From an uncultured Oscillospiraceae bacterium (GTDB lineage Bacteria > Bacillota > Clostridia > Oscillospirales > Oscillospiraceae): a stretch of 47,974 bases of DNA. The translations under genes and the position numbers were made by a program. The notes beneath the pieces were generated by a model. The model made no database searches. It was not told the origin of the DNA and saw only the letters and a program-made list of their open reading frames with translations. Below are positions 5,918-45,913 of this stretch, one piece after another. The stretch is from assembly GCA_934597345.1 (NCBI GenBank), contig CAKTRJ010000018.1, positions 1 to 47,974 on the forward strand, in the 5' to 3' direction. Each line of letters begins with the position of its first letter. Within the stretch, counting starts at the first letter, position 1.

Positions 5918-7102
5918 ATGACGAAGTGTAAGAAAAATATCGGCCTTAATGTTTACAGCCGAAAGGACGGACGCTATGAAGTCCGTGTTCTCGATACGCG
6001 GTACACCAGTGACGGCAAGAAAAAATACAAGAGCTTTTACGGTGATACAGCAGAAGAGGCATTGGAAAAAGCCTTCAAATTTCAATATGAAAGCAAAAAC
6101 GGCAGTTACCGTCAAAGAACAAAACAAACAGTCGCTGAATGGTTGGCACAATGGTGGACGGATTATATAAAAGACTTGAAAGCTGCCTTAACTGCCTCCA
6201 GCTATGAGGGGCTCATCAAAAATCACATTAACCCCTACATAGGTGGCATTCGATTGCAGGAACTTGCCCTGTCCGACGTCCAACGTCTGATTAGGGAGTT
6301 GCAGAAGTATAGAGACTCAAAAGGCAAAAGGCTGGCCGCCAAAACCATCAGAAATGCCATCTCTACTTTGAGTTCCGCTTTGACAGCCGCCGTCGATGAA
6401 GAACTGATAGAGAGGAATCCTTGCGAAAAAGCAAAGTTGCCAAATGTCGAGAAGCACGAAATCATTCCCTTGAATAGTGAGGAGCTTTCCGCGTTTCTTG
6501 AAGCACTTGAGGATGACCCTGAGTTTAAGAACGCTTATTTGTTCTGCATTTATACTGGTGTCCGCGAGGGCGAATGCCTTGGCCTCAGCTGGTCCAATGT
6601 TAATTTTGAAAAGAAAACGGTAACGATTGCGCAGCAGCTTCAGAAAATTCGCAGCGAGAACGGCGGAACATACGTCATCAAAAAATGTACGAAGACGAAA
6701 AAGCCCCGCACCATCTGTGTATCAAACAGTGTCATTGCCTGTCTGAAAAACGAAAAGATGAGGCAGGAGGAAAATGCAAGGCTGGCTGGCAAGTTGTGGA
6801 ACAATGAATGGGATTTGGTCTTTACCAACGACCTTGGACGGCATCTGATTATTGTGACTTTCTACAAGCATTTTAAGAGAATCGTTGCGAAGATCGGCCG
6901 CCCTGATGCTCGCCCCCACGATTTGCGGCACACCTTTGCCTCCTTGGCGATTGCTGATAACAGGGGGGACATCAAATCCGTACAAACGATTTTAGGGCAC
7001 TCTAATGCCATGACGACACTAAACACATATACTCACCCCGACGAAGATGCACAGCGTGAGTCCATGGGGAGGGTAGACGCGTACATAGATACGCTCAAAT
7101 AA
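5918..7102 (+). CDS. tyrosine recombinase (phage/ICE integrase)
   Basis: A 394-residue integrase starting at the ATG at 5918 after AAAGGATGAAGAACA. The order is an arm-binding N-terminal domain (about 8-55), a SAM-like core-binding domain (about 65-165), and the catalytic domain with TGVREGE (Arg I, about 212), HDLRHTFASL (His-x-x-Arg, about 335), LGHSNAMTT (about 365) and the nucleophile Tyr in TYTHPD (about 373). It catalyses integration and excision of the element. It ends about 110 bases from the 3' end of tRNA-Ser(GCU), with paired GGTCAAA repeats (about 7136-7156) between, which could be integrase arm sites. The usual recombinase/tRNA arrangement suggests the tRNA 3' end is the attachment site. 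Confidence 0.93.
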   Translation: MTKCKKNIGLNVYSRKDGRYEVRVLDTRYTSDGKKKYKSFYGDTAEEALEKAFKFQYESKNGSYRQRTKQTVAEWLAQWWTDYIKDLKAALTASSYEGLIKNHINPYIGGIRLQELALSDVQRLIRELQKYRDSKGKRLAAKTIRNAISTLSSALTAAVDEELIERNPCEKAKLPNVEKHEIIPLNSEELSAFLEALEDDPEFKNAYLFCIYTGVREGECLGLSWSNVNFEKKTVTIAQQLQKIRSENGGTYVIKKCTKTKKPRTICVSNSVIACLKNEKMRQEENARLAGKLWNNEWDLVFTNDLGRHLIIVTFYKHFKRIVAKIGRPDARPHDLRHTFASLAIADNRGDIKSVQTILGHSNAMTTLNTYTHPDEDAQRESMGRVDAYIDTLK

Positions 7103-7211: not shown

Positions 7212-7303
7212 TGGCGCGGAAGGAGGGATTTGAACCCTCGCGCCGCTTTTGACGGCCTACTCCCTTAGCAGGGGAGCCCCTTCGGCCACTTGGGTACTTC
7301 CGC
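7212..7303 (-). tRNA. tRNA-Ser(GCU)
   Basis: The acceptor stem GCGGAAG pairs with CTTCCGC, with discriminator G and encoded CCA. The anticodon loop is CTGCTAA (anticodon GCU), a long variable arm (class II) follows, and the T loop is TTCAAAT. The 3' half faces the integrase and is the probable attachment site of the mobile element. Confidence 0.95.
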
Positions 7304-7316
7304 ATATAGGATTTTC

Positions 7317-7404
7317 TGGCGGAGAGAGTGGGATTCGAACCCACGGATGCTTTCACATCGCCGGTTTTCAAGACCGGTGCTTTCGACCACTCAGCCATCT
7401 CTCC
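7317..7404 (-). tRNA. tRNA-Ser(UGA)
   Basis: The acceptor stem GGAGAGA pairs with TCTCTCC, with discriminator G and encoded CCA. The anticodon loop is CTTGAAA (anticodon UGA), a long variable arm is present, and the T loop is TTCGAAT. It lies 13 bases upstream of tRNA-Ser(GCU) and is probably co-transcribed with it. Confidence 0.95.
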
Positions 7405-7581
7405 GTATGCGAAAATCCGTAGCAAGAACCCAGACGCAGGTTATATCTTACCATGCCGCGGGCGTTTTGTCAACAAAAAGAAAGTGGCTCGATAAAAAAA
7501 TAAAAAAATCGAAAATTAGGGGTTGCAAAATGGAAAATGATGTGCTATTATAAATAAGCTGTCTGACAGACAAGTGAATAT

Positions 7582-7658
7582 CCGGGTGTGGCGAAGTTTG
7601 GTATCGCGCTTGAATGGGGTTCAAGAGGCCTTGAGTTCGAATCTCAACACTCGGACCA
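7582..7658 (+). tRNA. tRNA-Pro(GGG)
   Basis: The acceptor stem CCGGGTG pairs with CACTCGG, followed by A and an encoded CCA. The anticodon stem CTTGA/TCAAG holds the loop ATGGGGT (anticodon GGG). The D arm (GCG...CGC) and T arm (TTGAG TTCGAAT CTCAA) are intact. Confidence 0.93.
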
Positions 7659-21636: not shown

Positions 21637-21646
21637 GGGACGGAGC

Positions 21647-21675
21647 GGCGGGGTGAGGGTACCACGCCCTACGGA
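21647..21675 (+). repeat. 29-bp repeat unit, copy 1
   Basis: It begins GGCGGGGTGAGGG and ends CGCCCTACGGA. It matches 45885-45913 at 27 of 29 positions in the same orientation. Confidence 0.7.
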
Positions 21676-32223: not shown

Positions 32224-33555
32224 ATGAATATGCAAAAGAAGAAAAGTACAGTTCGGGACGTGATCGTGATCGGTTTCGCGCTGTTTTCCATGTTTTTCGG
32301 CGCGGGAAACGTGGTGTTTCCCCCGTACCTGGGTCTGGAAGCCGGTCCTGAGTGGCTGACCGGCTTTGCCGCCTACTTTATCGCTGATATCGGTCTGGCG
32401 CTGCTGGGCATGTTCGCCCTGCTGCGCGTGGGCAGCAGTGAGGCCGTGCTGCACCGCGTGGGCCGTGTGCCCGCTGAGATCCTGATGTGCGCCATCATCC
32501 TGTGCATCGGCCCCATGGTGGCCATCCCCCGTACCTCCGCCAGCACCTATGAGATGGCCATCGCGCCCAACATCTCCGGTGTGTCTCCGGTGGTGTTCTC
32601 CGTGATCTTCTTCGCGGTGATCCTGGCGCTGTGCATCAAGGAGTCCGCCGTGGTGGACATCGTGGGCAAGATCCTGACTCCGCTGCTGCTGGTGGGCCTG
32701 TTCGCCATCATCATCAAGGGAGTCGTGACCCCGCTGGGTGACATTTCCGCCCTGCCTCAGATCAACAACGTGGCCGTCACCGGCATCAAGGCCGGCTATC
32801 AGACCATGGACGCGCTGGCCGCCCTGCCCTTCGGCATCATCGTGCTGCAGAGCGCCGCCAGCAAGGGCTACTCCGGCAAGAAGTCCACCCTCCGCATCGT
32901 AGGCGGCTCCGCGCTGCTGGCCGGTGTGCTGCTGCTGGCGGTGTATATGGGTCTTGCCTATCTGGGCGCCACCGTTTCCACCCAGTATACCGGCGCCGAG
33001 ATTGGCCGCGCTCAGCTGACCATGGCCATTGTCGAGGGCCTGATGGGCAAGGTGGGTATGGTGCTGTTCGGTGTGGTCGTGGGTCTGGCCTGCGTCACCA
33101 CCGCCGTGGCCCTGACCAGCTCCGCCGCCGCGTATTTCTCCGAGCTGTGCCGTGGCAAGGTGCCCTATAAGGTGTTTGTCATCGCCATCTGCGTCTTCAG
33201 CGCCGTGGTGTCCAACCTGGGTCTGGACCGCATCGTGGCGGTTGCCTCTCCCGTGCTGGACGTGGTGTATCCGCCCACGCTGGTGCTGATCTTCATCGCC
33301 CTGATCGTTCCCCATGCCCCTGACCGTGTCAGCCGCTGCGCCGTCATCGGCGCGCTGATCACCAGCGTGCTGTGCACCCTGCATACCTATGGCGTGTCCC
33401 TGACCTTTGTGGAGCATCTGCCTCTGTACGATCTGGGCCTGGCCTGGGTGGTCCCCGCCGTGGTGCTCGGCCTGATCGCCGCGCTGCCCGGTTTGCGCTC
33501 CCATTCCCGCTCCCGTTCGGGACAGACCTTCCACAGTCCCACCGAGGAGCATTGA
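32224..33555 (+). CDS. brnQ: branched-chain amino acid:cation symporter (LIVCS family)
   Basis: A 443-residue protein with GAGGAGAAAGG before its ATG. It has about 12 membrane helices, beginning with the family block ALFSMFFGAGNVVFPPYLG (about 19-37), and GPMVAIPRTSASTYE (about 99) is typical of BrnQ. It imports leucine, isoleucine and valine with Na+ or H+. The divergent LysR gene may regulate it. No T-box leader is seen. Confidence 0.92.
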   Translation: MNMQKKKSTVRDVIVIGFALFSMFFGAGNVVFPPYLGLEAGPEWLTGFAAYFIADIGLALLGMFALLRVGSSEAVLHRVGRVPAEILMCAIILCIGPMVAIPRTSASTYEMAIAPNISGVSPVVFSVIFFAVILALCIKESAVVDIVGKILTPLLLVGLFAIIIKGVVTPLGDISALPQINNVAVTGIKAGYQTMDALAALPFGIIVLQSAASKGYSGKKSTLRIVGGSALLAGVLLLAVYMGLAYLGATVSTQYTGAEIGRAQLTMAIVEGLMGKVGMVLFGVVVGLACVTTAVALTSSAAAYFSELCRGKVPYKVFVIAICVFSAVVSNLGLDRIVAVASPVLDVVYPPTLVLIFIALIVPHAPDRVSRCAVIGALITSVLCTLHTYGVSLTFVEHLPLYDLGLAWVVPAVVLGLIAALPGLRSHSRSRSGQTFHSPTEEH

Positions 33556-33581
33556 CAATAGCGGTAAAGCCGCCTCTCCTG

Positions 33582-33613
33582 AAACAGGGCCGCCTTCGGG
33601 CGGCTCTGTTTTT
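33582..33613 (+). terminator. terminator after brnQ
   Basis: AAACAGGGCCGCC (33582-33594) pairs with GGCGGCTCTGTTT (33599-33611), one G-T pair, with a TTCG loop and T-run. Confidence 0.88.
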
Positions 33614-33750
33614 ATCATTTATGAGAAAAGCAGAAACGTTATGGCTGCAAGCTGCGCCGCTTTTCAACGCTTTAACGTTAACACGGGAGATCCTGTACGG
33701 ATATCCTGAATTTATTTGCTGATTTTTTCTAGTTGAAAACGTTTTCTTTC

Positions 33751-33829
33751 TTTGAAATCTTGATTTTTGAGATCGATACGAGTATAATGCCCTGCGTGTA
33801 AAATCAATGGTATGATAAGTGATTTCAAA
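33751..33829 (+). promoter_or_regulatory. promoter between nested inverted repeats, possible invertible switch
   Basis: TTGATT (33760-33765), a 17-base spacer and TATAAT (33783-33788) face the surface-protein gene. They lie between TTTGAAATC (33751-33759) and GATTTCAAA (33821-33829). An inner pair TTGATTTT (33760-33767) and AAAATCAA (33800-33807) is also inverted. A minus-strand TTGATT-15-TATACT overlaps it, so the core could be read both ways. An orphan tyrosine recombinase lies 3.4 kb downstream. Promoter confidence is high; inversion is an inference. Confidence 0.55.
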
Positions 33830-33885
33830 ACCATGTTCCGTGCATGACCTTTGCCCCGGAACAGTAGTATCGGAGGTGGCGGCAA

Positions 33886-36800
33886 ATGCGTCTGCATAAT
33901 CTGTCACAAGACAAAACGTACATAAAAAAACATTGCGCTTCTAAGCACTGGCCCAAGGCGCTAATGCTTTTGTGTGCTGCTGCGGTGTTTTGCGCGACCT
34001 ATGCGCTGGCCCGGCCCGCCATCGCAATGGAGAGAACGTGTCAGATCCCGGAGCATACGCACACAGACGCTGGTGCTGCCGTTTGTGCTCAGTTTTCTGG
34101 ATGACGTGGTGCCGGATAACTACCGGCTGCCCGTCACCGCGTCGGTCTCCGGCGGAAGTACGACCGAGCCCAACATCTATAAGCCGGAATATAAAAAGTG
34201 GGAAATCGTAAAGTTTGTCAACTCCAACCGCCACAGGGAGTTCGCGCAGGATGGCGCGGAGGTCGTCGTCACGCCGAAAGAGGAGGGCGGCAACCCCTAT
34301 CTGGATGATCTTACCTATGTGGATTTCGCGTTTACCGTCAACGGCTGTACATATGAGGGCGCCGACCTGAATGACTGGCGTGATGCCTGTGAGGTCACGC
34401 TGACGGACACGCTGCCGAAATATACGAACAGGGACGGCGTGGAGAAAATCGCGGTCTTTGATGCGGACAAGAACCTCGGCTGGACGCTCAGTGATGACGG
34501 GACGTCGGTTTCCAAAACCTACACCGGCACGAGATCCGGCGATGTGCTGACGAAGATCTTCAACGACAAGCTGAGCCTGCGCTTCCCCGGACTCAAGTTT
34601 GAAGGGAAGGATAACGACCTGATCGCTGACCTTGACAACAGCGTTCATCTGACGGCTGTCCCCGGCAATGCGGCCGAAGGCGAGACCCATCCGACGGCAG
34701 ACGATTCGCTCCGCTTCCGTATGACCAGCGATCCCAGCACGTCGGGGCGTTTCTCCAAATGGGCGACCAAGGGCGACATCTATGATGAGGATTCCTACAA
34801 GACCAACCCCTATCCGTGGCGTGTTTCCCTGCACAACGATCAGAAGAAGATGACGCCGCTGCGGCACATTGTGATCCAGGATCGTGAGATCACGGAAAAT
34901 GGGGAAACCGTGCTCGAGGGTCTGGATAAGGCCTTGAAGTTTGTCAAGCTGGGATCCGATGGACACTCCGCATTGGCCAGCGGGCAGACGTATGCGGATA
35001 TCATTGATAGGATCGTGGCCTATTATACCGACGGGACAACGCAGGACTACGTGGTCACAGAGAACGATCTGGATGCCCATGGTCATTTCATCATCGTTTT
35101 CGACGAGAATAAGATCTGCAACGGCTACGAGATCATCTTCCGTGACGATTACGAGATGCAGCATGGCGAAGGGGTCGAGTTTCAGGTTTATACCGTCTAC
35201 CGTGATCCGGACCACACGCATGTTCCGGATGGGACGGAAAAGGTTCCCTATACCAATGAGGCGAGAAGCGTCAACAGCTACCAGAACGGCGATGACACGG
35301 TAGTTGTCTATCTGAAGCAGGAGGGCAGCTATGATATGCTGCCCAGCGTGGAAGAACTGTGGGTGGGAAAGAAGACACTCTTCAATGACGGCTCAAGCAC
35401 CTGGGACGGTATCGGCGGCAACACGGTCGGAAGCACCTACGCCTATGTGATCCAGCTGCACGGCTCACTGCTGGAACCGGAGGTAAAAGAATATCAGGAT
35501 ATCCGGGTCGTAGACCTTCTGCCCGACGGCGTACATTATGAGAAGGTCCATCTGGTCCAGCAGGATTTTTCTGTGGGTTCCATATTGGACGGCGGCAAAA
35601 ACTACCAGCCGGAGGTCATAGAAAACTATCACAATTCCGGGCGAACGGCTGTTATTTTTCACCTGAATGTGGAAAATCTGCGCAAGACGGTGAGAACACA
35701 GGCGGATATCTATTTCGGCGTGACCATTGATAAGGACGCGCATCCCGGTACGGTCCGGAATGACGTCTATGTGGTCGGGGACAATCTGGCGAATATCGGG
35801 GAAAGAACAGCCACACGCCGGATATCTACGATCTGAACAACAACGGCAGGACTGACGATATGATCGCCTGTGGCTTTTCCGATGCGACGATCATTGCCGC
35901 CCAGTCCATCTATGCGGAAAAGTTCATCGCGCCCGCCGCTTCCGACAACTGGAGCAAGCAGGGACTGCTGATCAGGACCGGCTCCGATTTTGATTACCTG
36001 CTGAAAGTTACCAACGAGACAAAGGCGGCGTGCACCGGCCTTGTCGTGTACGACACCCTGCCCCGCAGAGGTGACGAAAATATCTTCGGTACGCAGAGCA
36101 GGAATTCGGAGTTCGACGTCCATCTGCGCAGTGCCATCACCCCGCTGGCGGGCTATACCGTCTATTACACCACAAGTGCAGCGGTTTATGAAAAGCCCAT
36201 GGCCGATATGGTAGATGCCGATATCTGGACAGATTCCGTTTCCGACTATTCCGCGGTCACGGCGTTCAAGATCGTTGCCAAAGAGGGAACGGTGTTGAAC
36301 GGGGAGAGCACGTTTGAGGTCCGTATCCCGGCGCAGGCGCCATCTCAGTTGGACGACGCGTCCATGACGATCCTGCATAGAAAAGCCCCGCAGGATCAGA
36401 CCACGGGCACCGTGACCTGGCTGGAAGCTGTCAACTCCTTCGGCTTCCATACGGCCGAGTCGCCCTCGGTGAAGGAGTCCAACTCCGTCTGGGTGCGTAT
36501 TCCCTTTGCGGGTTTCTGTGTGAAAAAAGTGGACGATGCCAGCGGCAGCGCACTTTCCGGCGCGGAATTCACGCTGACCGATGCAACGGGGAATGTGATC
36601 GCCGCGGCGACCAGCGGCGAGGACGGCCTTGTGCAGTTCCGCGAGCTGACAGCGGGCACCTATACCCTGACGGAAACCAAGGTCCCGGACGGCTATATGG
36701 ACAGCCATCTTTCCGTGACCGTGACAATAACGCAAAACCTTGTCACGATGGAATACGGCATTTCCTTCGGGGATCTGTATACCGGCGCCGGTAGCACCGC

Positions 36801-36951
36801 CGACCCGCTGTGTATTCCGAACCGCACGATGTTCGTGCTTCCGGGTACCGGCGGCGCCGGTACCGCGCGATATATGACGGGCGGCGCATTGCTGATGGCC
36901 GCCGCATACCTGCTGTATATCCGGAATAAGCGCAGAAAGACGTCCGATTGA
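33886..36951 (+). pseudogene. LPXTG-anchored surface protein with Cna-B-like domain, two frame changes
   Basis: The gene starts at 33886 (GGAGGTGGCGGCAA upstream) with a signal peptide: basic start, hydrophobic MLLCAAAVFCATYALA, then CQIPEHTHTD, typical of Firmicutes surface proteins. That frame ends at 34104. The coding continues in the next frame from roughly 34060-34100 to 35836, and returns to the first frame at about 35800, where HTPDIYDLNNNGRTDD continues plausibly, to 36951. The middle part (about 600 residues) is beta-rich adhesin-like sequence with DLLPDGVHY. The C-terminal part has a SpaA/Cna-B-like domain (SGSALSGAEFTLTDATGN and AGTYTLTETKVPDGY), then VLPGTGG, a membrane helix and KRRK, a sortase anchor. 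A GGGG run at 35798-35801 may have lost one base. It may be a decayed gene or a sequence error. No sortase is nearby. Confidence 0.75.
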
Positions 36952-36984
36952 GAAGGTTCGTACAAAAAATATTTCGGGCAGAGC

Positions 36985-37018
36985 AAACCCCTCGTAACCG
37001 CAAGGTTGCGAGGGGTTT
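36985..37018 (+). terminator. terminator after the surface-protein gene
   Basis: 15-bp arms (36985-36999 and 37004-37018), one T-G pair, with a GCAA tetraloop, followed by CTTATG. A strong hairpin with a weak tail. Confidence 0.8.
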
Positions 37019-37222
37019 CTTATGCCCCTTACAGATATGGCACAGCAGCCCTTAAAATCAATACGTTCCAACAAATCAGTGCGAAAAACCAGGGAAATTA
37101 TCGTGCCGCTGCCATAAAATGGAAATGACACAATAATTTGTCGAACTATGTCGGATGACGGATGCGGAGGGTCTCCCGTAAAGGATACGCGCCGGGCATC
37201 ACGACGCAAGGAGGGTATTGAA

Positions 37223-38338
37223 ATGTCGAAGGGTGAAAATATTTTCAAGCGCAGGGACGGCCGCTGGGAGGCCCGGTATATCAAGGGCTATGAGCTGTCC
37301 GGCAGGATCAGATACGGATTCTGCTACGGAAAGACCTATCAGGAGGCAAAGGAAAAGGCGTCCCGCTGCAAAGCCGTGCTGAACAACGGCACGGCAGACG
37401 CCTCCGCACGCTCCCGCCATCGGCTGGTCTTTTACTGCGGCGAATGGCTCCGCGAAAAAAAGCCGATGATCAGAGAGGCCACCTATATCAAATACGACAC
37501 GATACTGAAGCGGCACATCCTGCCGCGGCTGGGCGGCTGCTTTCCCGCCGCTGTGACCACAGGGATGATCGATGCCTTTGCCAGAGCGCTTTTATACGAA
37601 GACGGGCTGGCGCCGAAAACCGTCCGGGATATCCTGACGGTCCTTCATGATATCCTGCGGTATCTGTCGGAGCACTGCGCGGGCACGCCGCCCGCCGCAA
37701 AGGTGAATTATCCCAAGACCGGCAGGACGGAGATCCGCGTGCTGTCCCGCGAGGAGCAGCAGAACTTCATATCCTATCTGCGCAAGGATATGGATGCGTG
37801 TAAATTCGGGATCCTGCTGGCGCTTTCCACCGGCGTCCGCATCGGAGAGCTGTGCGCACTGCGCTGGGAAAATATCTCACTGGCCGACAGAACGGTGTGC
37901 ATCACCGCCGCCATGCAGCGGTTGCGGGACACCACCGTGCCGGTGGGCACGAAAACGCGGGTGGTGATCGGACCGCCGAAAAGTGAGACCTCCGTCAGAA
38001 TAATCCCGCTGCCGGAGCATATCGTCGTTCTCTGCAAACAGGCGGCCCCGGCCTCGCCAGCCGCCTATGTGCTGACCGGCACGGAACACTATATGGAGCC
38101 GCGTGTGCTGCAATACCGCTTGAAAAAATATACGACTGCCTGCGGGTTGGAGGACGTTCATTTCCACACGCTCCGTCACACCTTTGCCACACGGGCCGTG
38201 GAGGTGGGCTTTGAGATCAAATCGCTGTCCGAGGTGCTGGGCCATGCCACCACCGCCATCACATTGGAACGCTATGTCCATTCCTCCTCTGAACTGAAAC
38301 GGATCAACATGGACAAGCTGACCGCCGCGGGCTTATAA
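37223..38338 (+). CDS. orphan tyrosine recombinase
   Basis: A 371-residue recombinase from the ATG at 37223 with AAGGAGG 9 bases upstream; a longer frame from 37148 has no ribosome site. The N-terminus (IFKRRDGRWEARYIKGY) resembles an arm-binding domain, then a core-binding domain. Catalytic residues are Arg in TGVRIGE (about 212), HTLRHTFATR (about 310), LGHATTAI (about 332) and Tyr in LERYVHSS (about 342). There is no excisionase and no tRNA, and no flanking repeats of an element are seen. It lies 270 bases after the surface gene, in the same direction, so a DNA-inversion role at that gene's promoter is plausible. A mobile-element remnant is the alternative. Confidence 0.88.
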   Translation: MSKGENIFKRRDGRWEARYIKGYELSGRIRYGFCYGKTYQEAKEKASRCKAVLNNGTADASARSRHRLVFYCGEWLREKKPMIREATYIKYDTILKRHILPRLGGCFPAAVTTGMIDAFARALLYEDGLAPKTVRDILTVLHDILRYLSEHCAGTPPAAKVNYPKTGRTEIRVLSREEQQNFISYLRKDMDACKFGILLALSTGVRIGELCALRWENISLADRTVCITAAMQRLRDTTVPVGTKTRVVIGPPKSETSVRIIPLPEHIVVLCKQAAPASPAAYVLTGTEHYMEPRVLQYRLKKYTTACGLEDVHFHTLRHTFATRAVEVGFEIKSLSEVLGHATTAITLERYVHSSSELKRINMDKLTAAGL

Positions 38339-38399
38339 GAGCGGCAGCCAGGCGTCGGGGGATTTTTCTCCGTCATTTCCCGCAAAACCGCTGACAAAG

Positions 38400-38422
38400 G
38401 CGGAAAACTGTGCTATACTGAA
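38400..38422 (+). promoter_or_regulatory. promoter of the DUF2284 gene
   Basis: A CTGACA box in CCGCTGACAAAGG, 17 bases upstream of TATACT (in GTGCTATACTG), lies about 35 bases before the start at 38455. Positions are approximate. Confidence 0.55.
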
Positions 38423-38454
38423 ACACACCATGACACAGAAAGGCGGCAGAGACC

Positions 38455-38988
38455 ATGTTTCAATATCATATCAGCGAGATGTCGGCCGAAACGACCGCCG
38501 CGGAATTCGTGGAAAGATTCGTCCATATTGAAAGATTCCTGCCCGCCTGTCAGCAATGCCACAACTACAACACCCGCTGGACATGTCCGCCCTTCGGATT
38601 TGACCCCATGACCATATGGAGCGCTTATACCGGGCTGCGGCTGTACGCACGCATCCTGCATGCCGACGCGCCGGGGCAGCCGCTGGACGACGCGCTGGAC
38701 GTGCTGAAGCATGAAAAGCGCCTGTACCGGGAGAAGCTGTCCCAATGGGAAAGCAGCGTACCGGGCAGCCAGATGCTGCTGGCGGGGACCTGCGACCAGT
38801 GCAAGGTGTGCGAAAAATCGCAGGGCAGGCCCTGCCACCATCCGGAGCGCCTGCGCTACTCCATCGAGGCGCTGGGCGGCGACGTGGAGGGCTGTTTGCA
38901 GCATTACTTCCACGTTCCCGTTCTGTGGGGCCGCGACGGGCTTGCGCCGGAATATCTGGTGCTGGTGGGCGGCCTTCTGATACGGTAA
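38455..38988 (+). CDS. DUF2284 putative metal-binding protein
   Basis: A 177-residue protein with several Cys clusters: CQQCHNYNTRWTCPPFG (about 33-49), GTCDQCKVCEKSQGRPCHHPE (as GTCDQCKVC at about 112 and PCHHPERLRYSIEALG at about 123) matching DUF2284, cytosolic proteins suggested to bind metal or Fe-S clusters. No enzyme activity is known to me. A Pro-rich CPPFGF motif is conserved in the family. It is followed by a small unknown gene 60 bases downstream. Confidence 0.85.
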   Translation: MFQYHISEMSAETTAAEFVERFVHIERFLPACQQCHNYNTRWTCPPFGFDPMTIWSAYTGLRLYARILHADAPGQPLDDALDVLKHEKRLYREKLSQWESSVPGSQMLLAGTCDQCKVCEKSQGRPCHHPERLRYSIEALGGDVEGCLQHYFHVPVLWGRDGLAPEYLVLVGGLLIR

Positions 38989-45852: not shown

Positions 45853-45884
45853 GGGTGGTCGCAAGAACTGCCCGCGTGATCGGC

Positions 45885-45913
45885 GGCGGGGTGAGGGCAC
45901 CCCGCCCTACGGA
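45885..45913 (+). repeat. 29-bp repeat unit, copy 2
   Basis: It begins GGCGGGGTGAGGG and ends CGCCCTACGGA; it matches 21647-21675 at 27 of 29 positions. Confidence 0.7.

What the first reader, a model, noticed from the sequence alone, without database searches (positions are those of the whole stretch)
33751..38338. Possible phase-variable surface antigen: invertible promoter next to an orphan recombinase
The sequence shows a good promoter (TTGATT-17-TATAAT, 33760-33788) lying between nested inverted repeats (TTTGAAATC/GATTTCAAA, and inside them TTGATTTT/AAAATCAA), upstream of an LPXTG surface-protein gene. An orphan tyrosine recombinase gene lies 270 bases after it. Known families: tyrosine recombinases such as RecV in Clostridioides difficile flip promoters of surface genes. 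Here the left arms are adjacent while the right arms are separated by 13 bases, and each is only 8-9 bp. I infer a possible ON/OFF switch. A divergent regulated promoter is the main alternative.
Basis: partly seen in the sequence, partly recalled or inferred. Interest (0 to 1): 0.75.

Follow-up and report, generated by a model that had tools for sequence, protein, structure and literature searches.

The report
Stranded relative of a DNA-flipping switch
The supposed flipping promoter looks like an ordinary promoter in front of a broken surface-protein gene, but the recombinase beside it belongs to a family of bacterial switches in which the enzyme's own gene sits inside the DNA segment that flips, and this copy lacks the recognisable ends of that segment.

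Summary
The letters are there: promoter TTGATT-17-TATAAT, 9-bp arms at 33751/33821, LPXTG C-terminus, tyrosine recombinase. The arms are chance-level: 102 of 500 shuffles of the intergenic region reach 9 bp. The surface gene is broken into three frames. The recombinase (37223-38338) is intact, and its relatives define a real switch: its gene lies inside a ~1.4-1.5 kb segment bounded by inverted repeats with core TCGCARAG-N7-CTYTGCGA, with an outward promoter just inside one end. Arms bracket the gene at 28 of 34 loci examined. 16 of 24 have an outward promoter scoring >=10 (shuffle mean 1.8). Two locus pairs hold the segment in opposite orientations, breaking at the repeats. Neighbours include exopolysaccharide-like, surface-protein and secretion-like genes. 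The window copy has neither arms nor a core site. Best reading: a family member that lost its sites, probably locked, beside a decayed surface gene with a fixed promoter. The proposed 33760-33820 switch is not supported. Trans action on distant sites cannot be excluded.

The parts
33751..33829 (.).
   Evidence: Present; chance-level; unlike the recombinase family's sites
33760..33788 (+). Sigma-70 type promoter TTGATT-17-TATAAT, read here as a fixed promoter of the surface gene (inference)
   Evidence: GGAGG and ATG at 33886 downstream
33886..34104 (+). First piece of the broken surface gene (72 aa to a stop)
   Evidence: N-terminus shared with P0121 and P0123
34058..35833 (+). Second piece, other frame (ORF listed as 33974-35836)
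   Evidence: tblastn of P0121, 98%
35791..36948 (+). Third piece, another frame: SpaA domain and LPXTG anchor (ORF listed as 35860-36951)
   Evidence: Pfam PF17802 and PF00746; tblastn of P0124, 94%
36981..37021 (+). Hairpin after the surface gene, terminator-like
   Evidence: -29.9 kcal/mol, z -8.0
37223..38338 (+). 371-aa tyrosine recombinase, intact frame; motif words with R, K, HxxR, H and Y start at residues 203, 252, 315 and 339
   Evidence: PF00589 2.3e-24; motif positions (catalytic role of these residues recalled); 5778 hits among 7999 scored candidates
36900..37203 (.). Where relatives carry the left arm and outward promoter (arm at about -260): no arm found; best leftward promoter-like match only 9 (TTTCCA-17-GATAAT)
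38339..38454 (.). Where relatives carry the right arm (about +1220): not found; a promoter-like CTGACA-17-TATACT precedes a DUF2284 gene

Best explanation
Relatives of this recombinase sit in self-contained invertible promoter cassettes. The recombinase gene lies inside a ~1.4-1.5 kb segment bounded by inverted core sites (8-bp half-sites, 7-bp spacer). A promoter just inside the end upstream of the gene reads outward. Flipping the segment would point that promoter at, or away from, a neighbouring exopolysaccharide-like, surface-protein or secretion-like operon. Shown by comparison: the anatomy, the site motif, the promoter position, and inversion with breakpoints at the repeats. Inferred: that this recombinase catalyses the flip and that flipping turns the neighbour on and off. 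The window's gene is an intact member by descent that now lacks the arms and core sites. It sits after a strong hairpin at the 3' end of a surface gene broken in two places. Inferred: this is a decayed or locked switch, the promoter at 33760-33788 is fixed, and nothing between 33751 and 33829 flips.
For: Arms bracket the recombinase gene at 28 of 34 loci, 27 with a score >=17, and in 3 of 4 named records. Relaxed core pattern: 36 strand-hits in 459,411 bp of the 34 loci, all 36 in the cassette-end intervals, 0 in the window (the pattern was drawn partly from these loci). Outward promoter >=10 (consensus matches plus 1 for an extended -10) in 16 of 24 versus shuffle mean 1.8, maximum 6; -10 end 50-62 nt from the outer edge in 13 of those 16; 0 of 24 at the other end. 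L058 versus L059: 1515 bp repeat-to-repeat aligned in reverse at 82%, one outer flank of 1278 bp direct at 79%. L071 versus L099: both flanks collinear (6764 bp at 94.8%, 1086 bp at 91.5%), 1230 bp repeat-to-repeat inverted at 92.4%. The window gene groups among repeat-bearing relatives. In the window the best arm score is 10, reached by 90 of 180 mismatched flank pairs. The second break of the surface gene is shared with P0121, P0123 and P0125.
Against: 6 of 34 relatives also lack the standard arms (L003, L069, L073, L085, L086, L098), so lacking them may be tolerated or functional. L098 has a 17-bp repeat with its left arm at -699, and L003 a core-like site at -407. The window's weak outward promoter (score 9) is not distinctive: 8 of 24 arm-bearing relatives also score under 10, six of them exactly 9. 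The recombinase frame is intact, which a long-dead switch need not keep. The window's own genome is not held, so sites elsewhere cannot be excluded. One search's null is inflated because core sites are shared between loci, and it clips the flanks of L066, L068 and L071, which score only 10-11 there. Other locus pairs with matching flanks show the same orientation (L082/L083; L072/L097). No read data were available for any locus.
Confidence: 0.68

Rival explanations
1. The recombinase is still active in trans: it has no site of its own here but flips promoter segments elsewhere in the genome, as RecV and Mpi do for several loci (passage of PMC5903667).
For: Intact frame and motif words. Core half-sites are similar across cassettes. 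6 of 34 relatives lack standard arms. One genome can hold several copies, e.g. four in G648.
Against: 27 of 34 relatives carry arms of score >=17 around their own gene. No genome of the window is held to show distant sites.
Confidence: 0.17
2. One reading: the recombinase flips the promoter segment 33751-33829.
For: Good promoter between repeats, LPXTG C-terminus, recombinase nearby.
Against: Repeats at chance level; unlike the family's sites; target gene broken; relatives' segments contain the recombinase gene itself.
Confidence: 0.04
3. The window's lineage uses a diverged site that lies here but is not recognised by motif or repeat search.
For: WIN, P0001 and P0002 form their own supported group; a 9-bp repeat GGAAATGAC at 37121/38372 flanks the gene.
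Against: About one such 9-mer pair is expected by chance in these flanks (own estimate), and two other pairs there score 10-10.5. Relatives only 36-42% identical still keep recognisable arms (L090, L091).
Confidence: 0.06
4. The recombinase is the integrase of a small mobile element carrying the surface gene.
For: PHROGs best match is phrog_1, integrase; best PDB hits are chains named Int protein.
Against: No tRNA gene at the locus. Among direct repeats of >=25 nt none well matched brackets it (one 74% pair, 36896/43076). No transfer genes were noticed beside the relatives, by eye only. The empty site could not be looked at.
Confidence: 0.05

Closest known systems
Inverton group 139 with invertase group 35 in hCom2 gut bacteria (PMC11892184; passages and section 8 read)
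   Same: Clostridia-dominated invertons (32 of 33) statistically linked to one tyrosine recombinase group; probably overlaps this family
   Different: The passages read do not give the site motif, a recombinase gene inside the segment, or the outward promoter; supplements could not be read, so identity is untested
Hin invertible segment of Salmonella (one passage of PMC5903667; otherwise recalled)
   Same: Recombinase gene inside the flipping segment; outward promoter (recalled)
   Different: Hin is a serine recombinase (recalled); this is a tyrosine recombinase with different sites and varied neighbours
Providencia stuartii fimbrial segment, 844 bp enclosing a recombinase gene (PMC5903667, passage)
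   Same: Invertible segment enclosing a recombinase gene near a surface-structure locus
   Different: Different phylum, shorter segment, 14-bp imperfect repeats; not compared by sequence
RecV switches of Clostridioides difficile (abstract starts in the listing; passages of PMC5903667)
   Same: Tyrosine recombinase, surface and motility targets, Clostridia
   Different: RecV acts on several separate switches; here the gene lies inside its own segment

Membership tests
Self-inverting tyrosine-recombinase promoter cassette (as defined here) | Recombinase of the family | tested here: met
   58-65% identity to the four G648 copies; groups among repeat-bearing relatives
Self-inverting tyrosine-recombinase promoter cassette (as defined here) | Inverted arms at about -260 and +1220 around the gene | tested here: not met
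   Best score 10 in the window, as in 90 of 180 mismatched pairs; 28 of 34 relatives have arms
Self-inverting tyrosine-recombinase promoter cassette (as defined here) | Core TCGCARAG-N7-CTYTGCGA | tested here: not met
   0 matches in the window; the four best half-site scores in 33550-38800 lie inside coding sequence
Self-inverting tyrosine-recombinase promoter cassette (as defined here) | Outward promoter upstream of the recombinase | tested here: inconclusive
   Best 9 (TTTCCA-17-GATAAT); 16 of 24 relatives score >=10, but six of the other eight also score 9
RecV-type invertible promoter | Promoter between inverted repeats above chance | tested here: not met
   102 of 500 shuffles reach 9 bp
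RecV-type invertible promoter | Both orientations seen in DNA | not testable with these tools
   No reads and no held genome for the window
Phase-variable surface antigen | Intact surface gene | tested here: not met
   Three frames; the second break is shared by P0121, P0123 and P0125, which speaks against a sequencing error there
Mobile-element integrase | Element ends or attachment site | tested here: inconclusive
   No tRNA at the locus; empty site not found, two genus searches with the neighbouring gene gave nothing

The most novel reading that the evidence does not exclude
Site-less members such as the window's are dedicated drivers: they have shed their own flipping segment and act in trans on many self-contained cassettes that share the TCGCARAG core, so that one enzyme could coordinate surface, exopolysaccharide and secretion switches across a genome.
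Probability: 0.12. Interest if true: 0.7.

Novelty: new variant of a known kind. Interest (0 to 1): 0.45.

Why it matters
The cassette looks like a portable ON/OFF module (enzyme, sites and promoter in about 1.5 kb) found beside exopolysaccharide-like, surface and WXG100-like secretion genes of Clostridia, several of them from gut samples. Its site and promoter rules would let one predict which surface operons of these little-studied bacteria switch, and in which state an assembly caught them. The window shows that a nearby recombinase plus short repeats is not enough to call a switch.

Tried and rejected
A larger invertible segment joining the surface-gene upstream region to either flank of the recombinase: best score 9.5. 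The recombinase in viral contigs: none. The surface protein P0124 in 350 genomes of one family: no match at 1e-40, which shows little. The empty site by way of the DUF2284 neighbour: nothing in 10 and 32 genomes. Recombinase in the genus of G302: 1 of 20 at 1e-60, 37% identity, fetched later as L089; genus of G380: 2 of 32 at 1e-90. Defence families: none. Two paper searches that demanded all terms returned none.

Rows dropped before the 34-locus count: L005 and L007 (contig ends or fragments cut the gene), and the hits that were fragments or under 36% identity; short loci covering places fetched at full length later were not counted twice. The four named records are counted apart: Enterococcus gilvus (L103) scored 12 and did not conform, and the second integrase gene in the R. 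albus stretch (L100) had no arms (score 10). The 24-cassette promoter count leaves out the four arm-bearing loci added later (L004, L096, L097, L099).

Full report
Observation. The repeats do not stand out: 102 of 500 dinucleotide shuffles of 33556-33885 hold a perfect inverted repeat of at least 9 bp (18 of 500 for the shorter 33700-33885), and 64 of 289 tiles of 330 nt across the window do too.

The surface gene is broken. Three frames carry it: 33886-34104, 34058-35833 and 35791-36948. Database proteins P0121 and P0123 (725 aa) match the first and second pieces, carry extra residues between them, and end where the second piece ends; P0125 (726 aa) does likewise. P0124 (959 aa) covers the second and third pieces in one frame and begins just after the first break. 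Breaks with counterparts in other records argue against sequencing error, most clearly for the second. A strong hairpin (36981-37021, -29.9 kcal/mol) separates this gene from the recombinase.

The recombinase family. The 371-aa recombinase has an intact frame and many relatives: 5778 of 7999 scored candidates pass (candidates were capped, 120 listed). In whole genomes it is patchy: 9 of 350, 4 of 61 and 2 of 32 at 1e-90, 1 of 20 at 1e-60 and 4 of 299 at 1e-100, the centres G648 and G002 counted in. I examined 34 loci with a full or nearly full gene: L003, L004, L057-L074, L082-L091 and L096-L099. In 28 of 34 the gene is bracketed by inverted repeats, usually at about -200 to -340 and +1150 to +1260 from its start; 27 of these score 17 or more, and L074 has 12 bp. 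Not met: L003, L069, L073, L085, L086 and L098 (L098 has a 17-bp repeat with one arm far off, at -699). L086 is 89% identical to its paralog L087 from -186 rightward and loses similarity before the place of L087's left arm, beside what looks by eye like a transposase gene. 19 of the 34 loci served to find the motif, 16 with arms; of the other 15, 12 have arms.

The core site is TCGCARAG, a 7-bp spacer, and the inverted half, with variants such as TCGTAGAG. A relaxed core pattern gives 36 strand-hits in 459,411 bp of these loci, all in the cassette-end intervals, and none in the window (the pattern came partly from the same loci).

The promoter. Between the left arm and the gene, 16 of 24 cassettes have a sigma-70-like promoter of score 10 or more reading outward, away from the recombinase. 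200 shuffles give a mean of 1.8 and a maximum of 6. In 13 of the 16 the -10 box ends 50-62 nt from the outer edge of the arm. None of 24 has one at the other end. Of the eight others, six score 9, one 8 and one none.

The flip. In genome G648, loci L058 and L059 share 1278 bp of one outer flank in direct orientation (79%), while the 1515 bp between the repeats align in reverse (82%). L071 (genome G001) and L099 (genome G1023) are the same locus in two genomes: left flank 6764 bp at 94.8%, right flank 1086 bp at 91.5%, and the 1230 bp from repeat to repeat inverted at 92.4%. Other pairs with matching flanks: L082/L083 and L072/L097 show the same orientation; L065/L071 suggests opposite orientations on a weak 449-bp match (67.7%). 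This is comparative evidence of site-specific inversion; it does not show which enzyme did it or how often.

Neighbours and named examples. Beside these genes stand exopolysaccharide-like genes (L058, L059, L061, L067, L071), large surface-like proteins (L057, L063, L064, L066, L068, L087, and L098, which lacks standard arms), and WXG100-like and FHA/kinase-like genes (L090, L091) (named by eye, not scanned; the output was cut). Named records with arms and an outward promoter: Ruminococcus albus 7 pRUMAL02 (20-bp arms), Vescimonas fastidiosa MM35 pMM35_02 (29-bp arms, a dockerin protein on the promoter side) and an uncultured phage record MT837341 (24-bp arms). Enterococcus gilvus pCR1A, upstream of WxL proteins, scored only 12.

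The window copy. The tree places WIN with P0001 and P0002 (100/100) among repeat-bearing relatives; deeper forks are less sure. DNA similarity to relatives lies within 37204-38338. The best arm score is 10, as in 90 of 180 mismatched flank pairs; there is no core site; the best outward promoter scores 9, which alone decides nothing. The simplest reading is loss of both cassette ends. A trans-acting role is the main rival and cannot be tested without the genome.

Literature. PMC11892184 (passages and section 8 read) reports inverton group 139, 32 of 33 from Clostridia, as most significantly linked to invertase group 35, a tyrosine recombinase group; this probably overlaps the family here, but the motif is in supplements I could not read. 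PMC5903667 (passages read) notes a Providencia segment enclosing a recombinase and names Hin as a recombinase within its segment. In the listings (20 of 26 papers shown), 48, 52 and 65 I saw no title or abstract start that describes this cassette, and searches returned no paper; that is no proof that it is unpublished, since most subscription papers are not held.

Verdict. The finding's specific switch is not supported. The family behind its recombinase is a real switch by comparative evidence, a new variant of a known kind, and the window holds a copy without recognisable sites.

Noticed in passing
window 5918-7102 with 7212-7658: A second integrase gene (394 aa) next to two tRNA-Ser genes and a tRNA-Pro gene, as for a tRNA-integrated element.
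   Followed up: no
window 21645-21675 and 45883-45913: A 31-nt direct repeat, 94% identical, 24 kb apart.
   Followed up: no
window 33886-36951 versus P0121, P0123, P0124: Alleles of the surface protein are near-identical except in sharp patches, as if by recombination between alleles (by eye).
   Followed up: partly
L058 5220-6083, L059 9530-10393, L070 1748-2557: Some cassettes have a second gene of 269-287 aa beside them that looks recombinase-like by eye, with a similar C-terminus (not scanned).
   Followed up: no
L090, L091: Cassettes with distant recombinases (36-42% identity) stand in front of WXG100-like and FHA/kinase-like genes, suggesting phase-variable secretion (named by eye).
   Followed up: no
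L082, L083: More than two core-like sites at one cassette, so more than two arrangements may be possible.
   Followed up: no
L003 1-11115: Recombinase between two divergent large surface genes with nearly the same N-terminus, and a single core-like site at -407.
   Followed up: partly
L086 versus L087: 89%-identical paralogous cassettes in one genome; L086 appears to have lost its left arm beside a transposase-like gene.
   Followed up: partly
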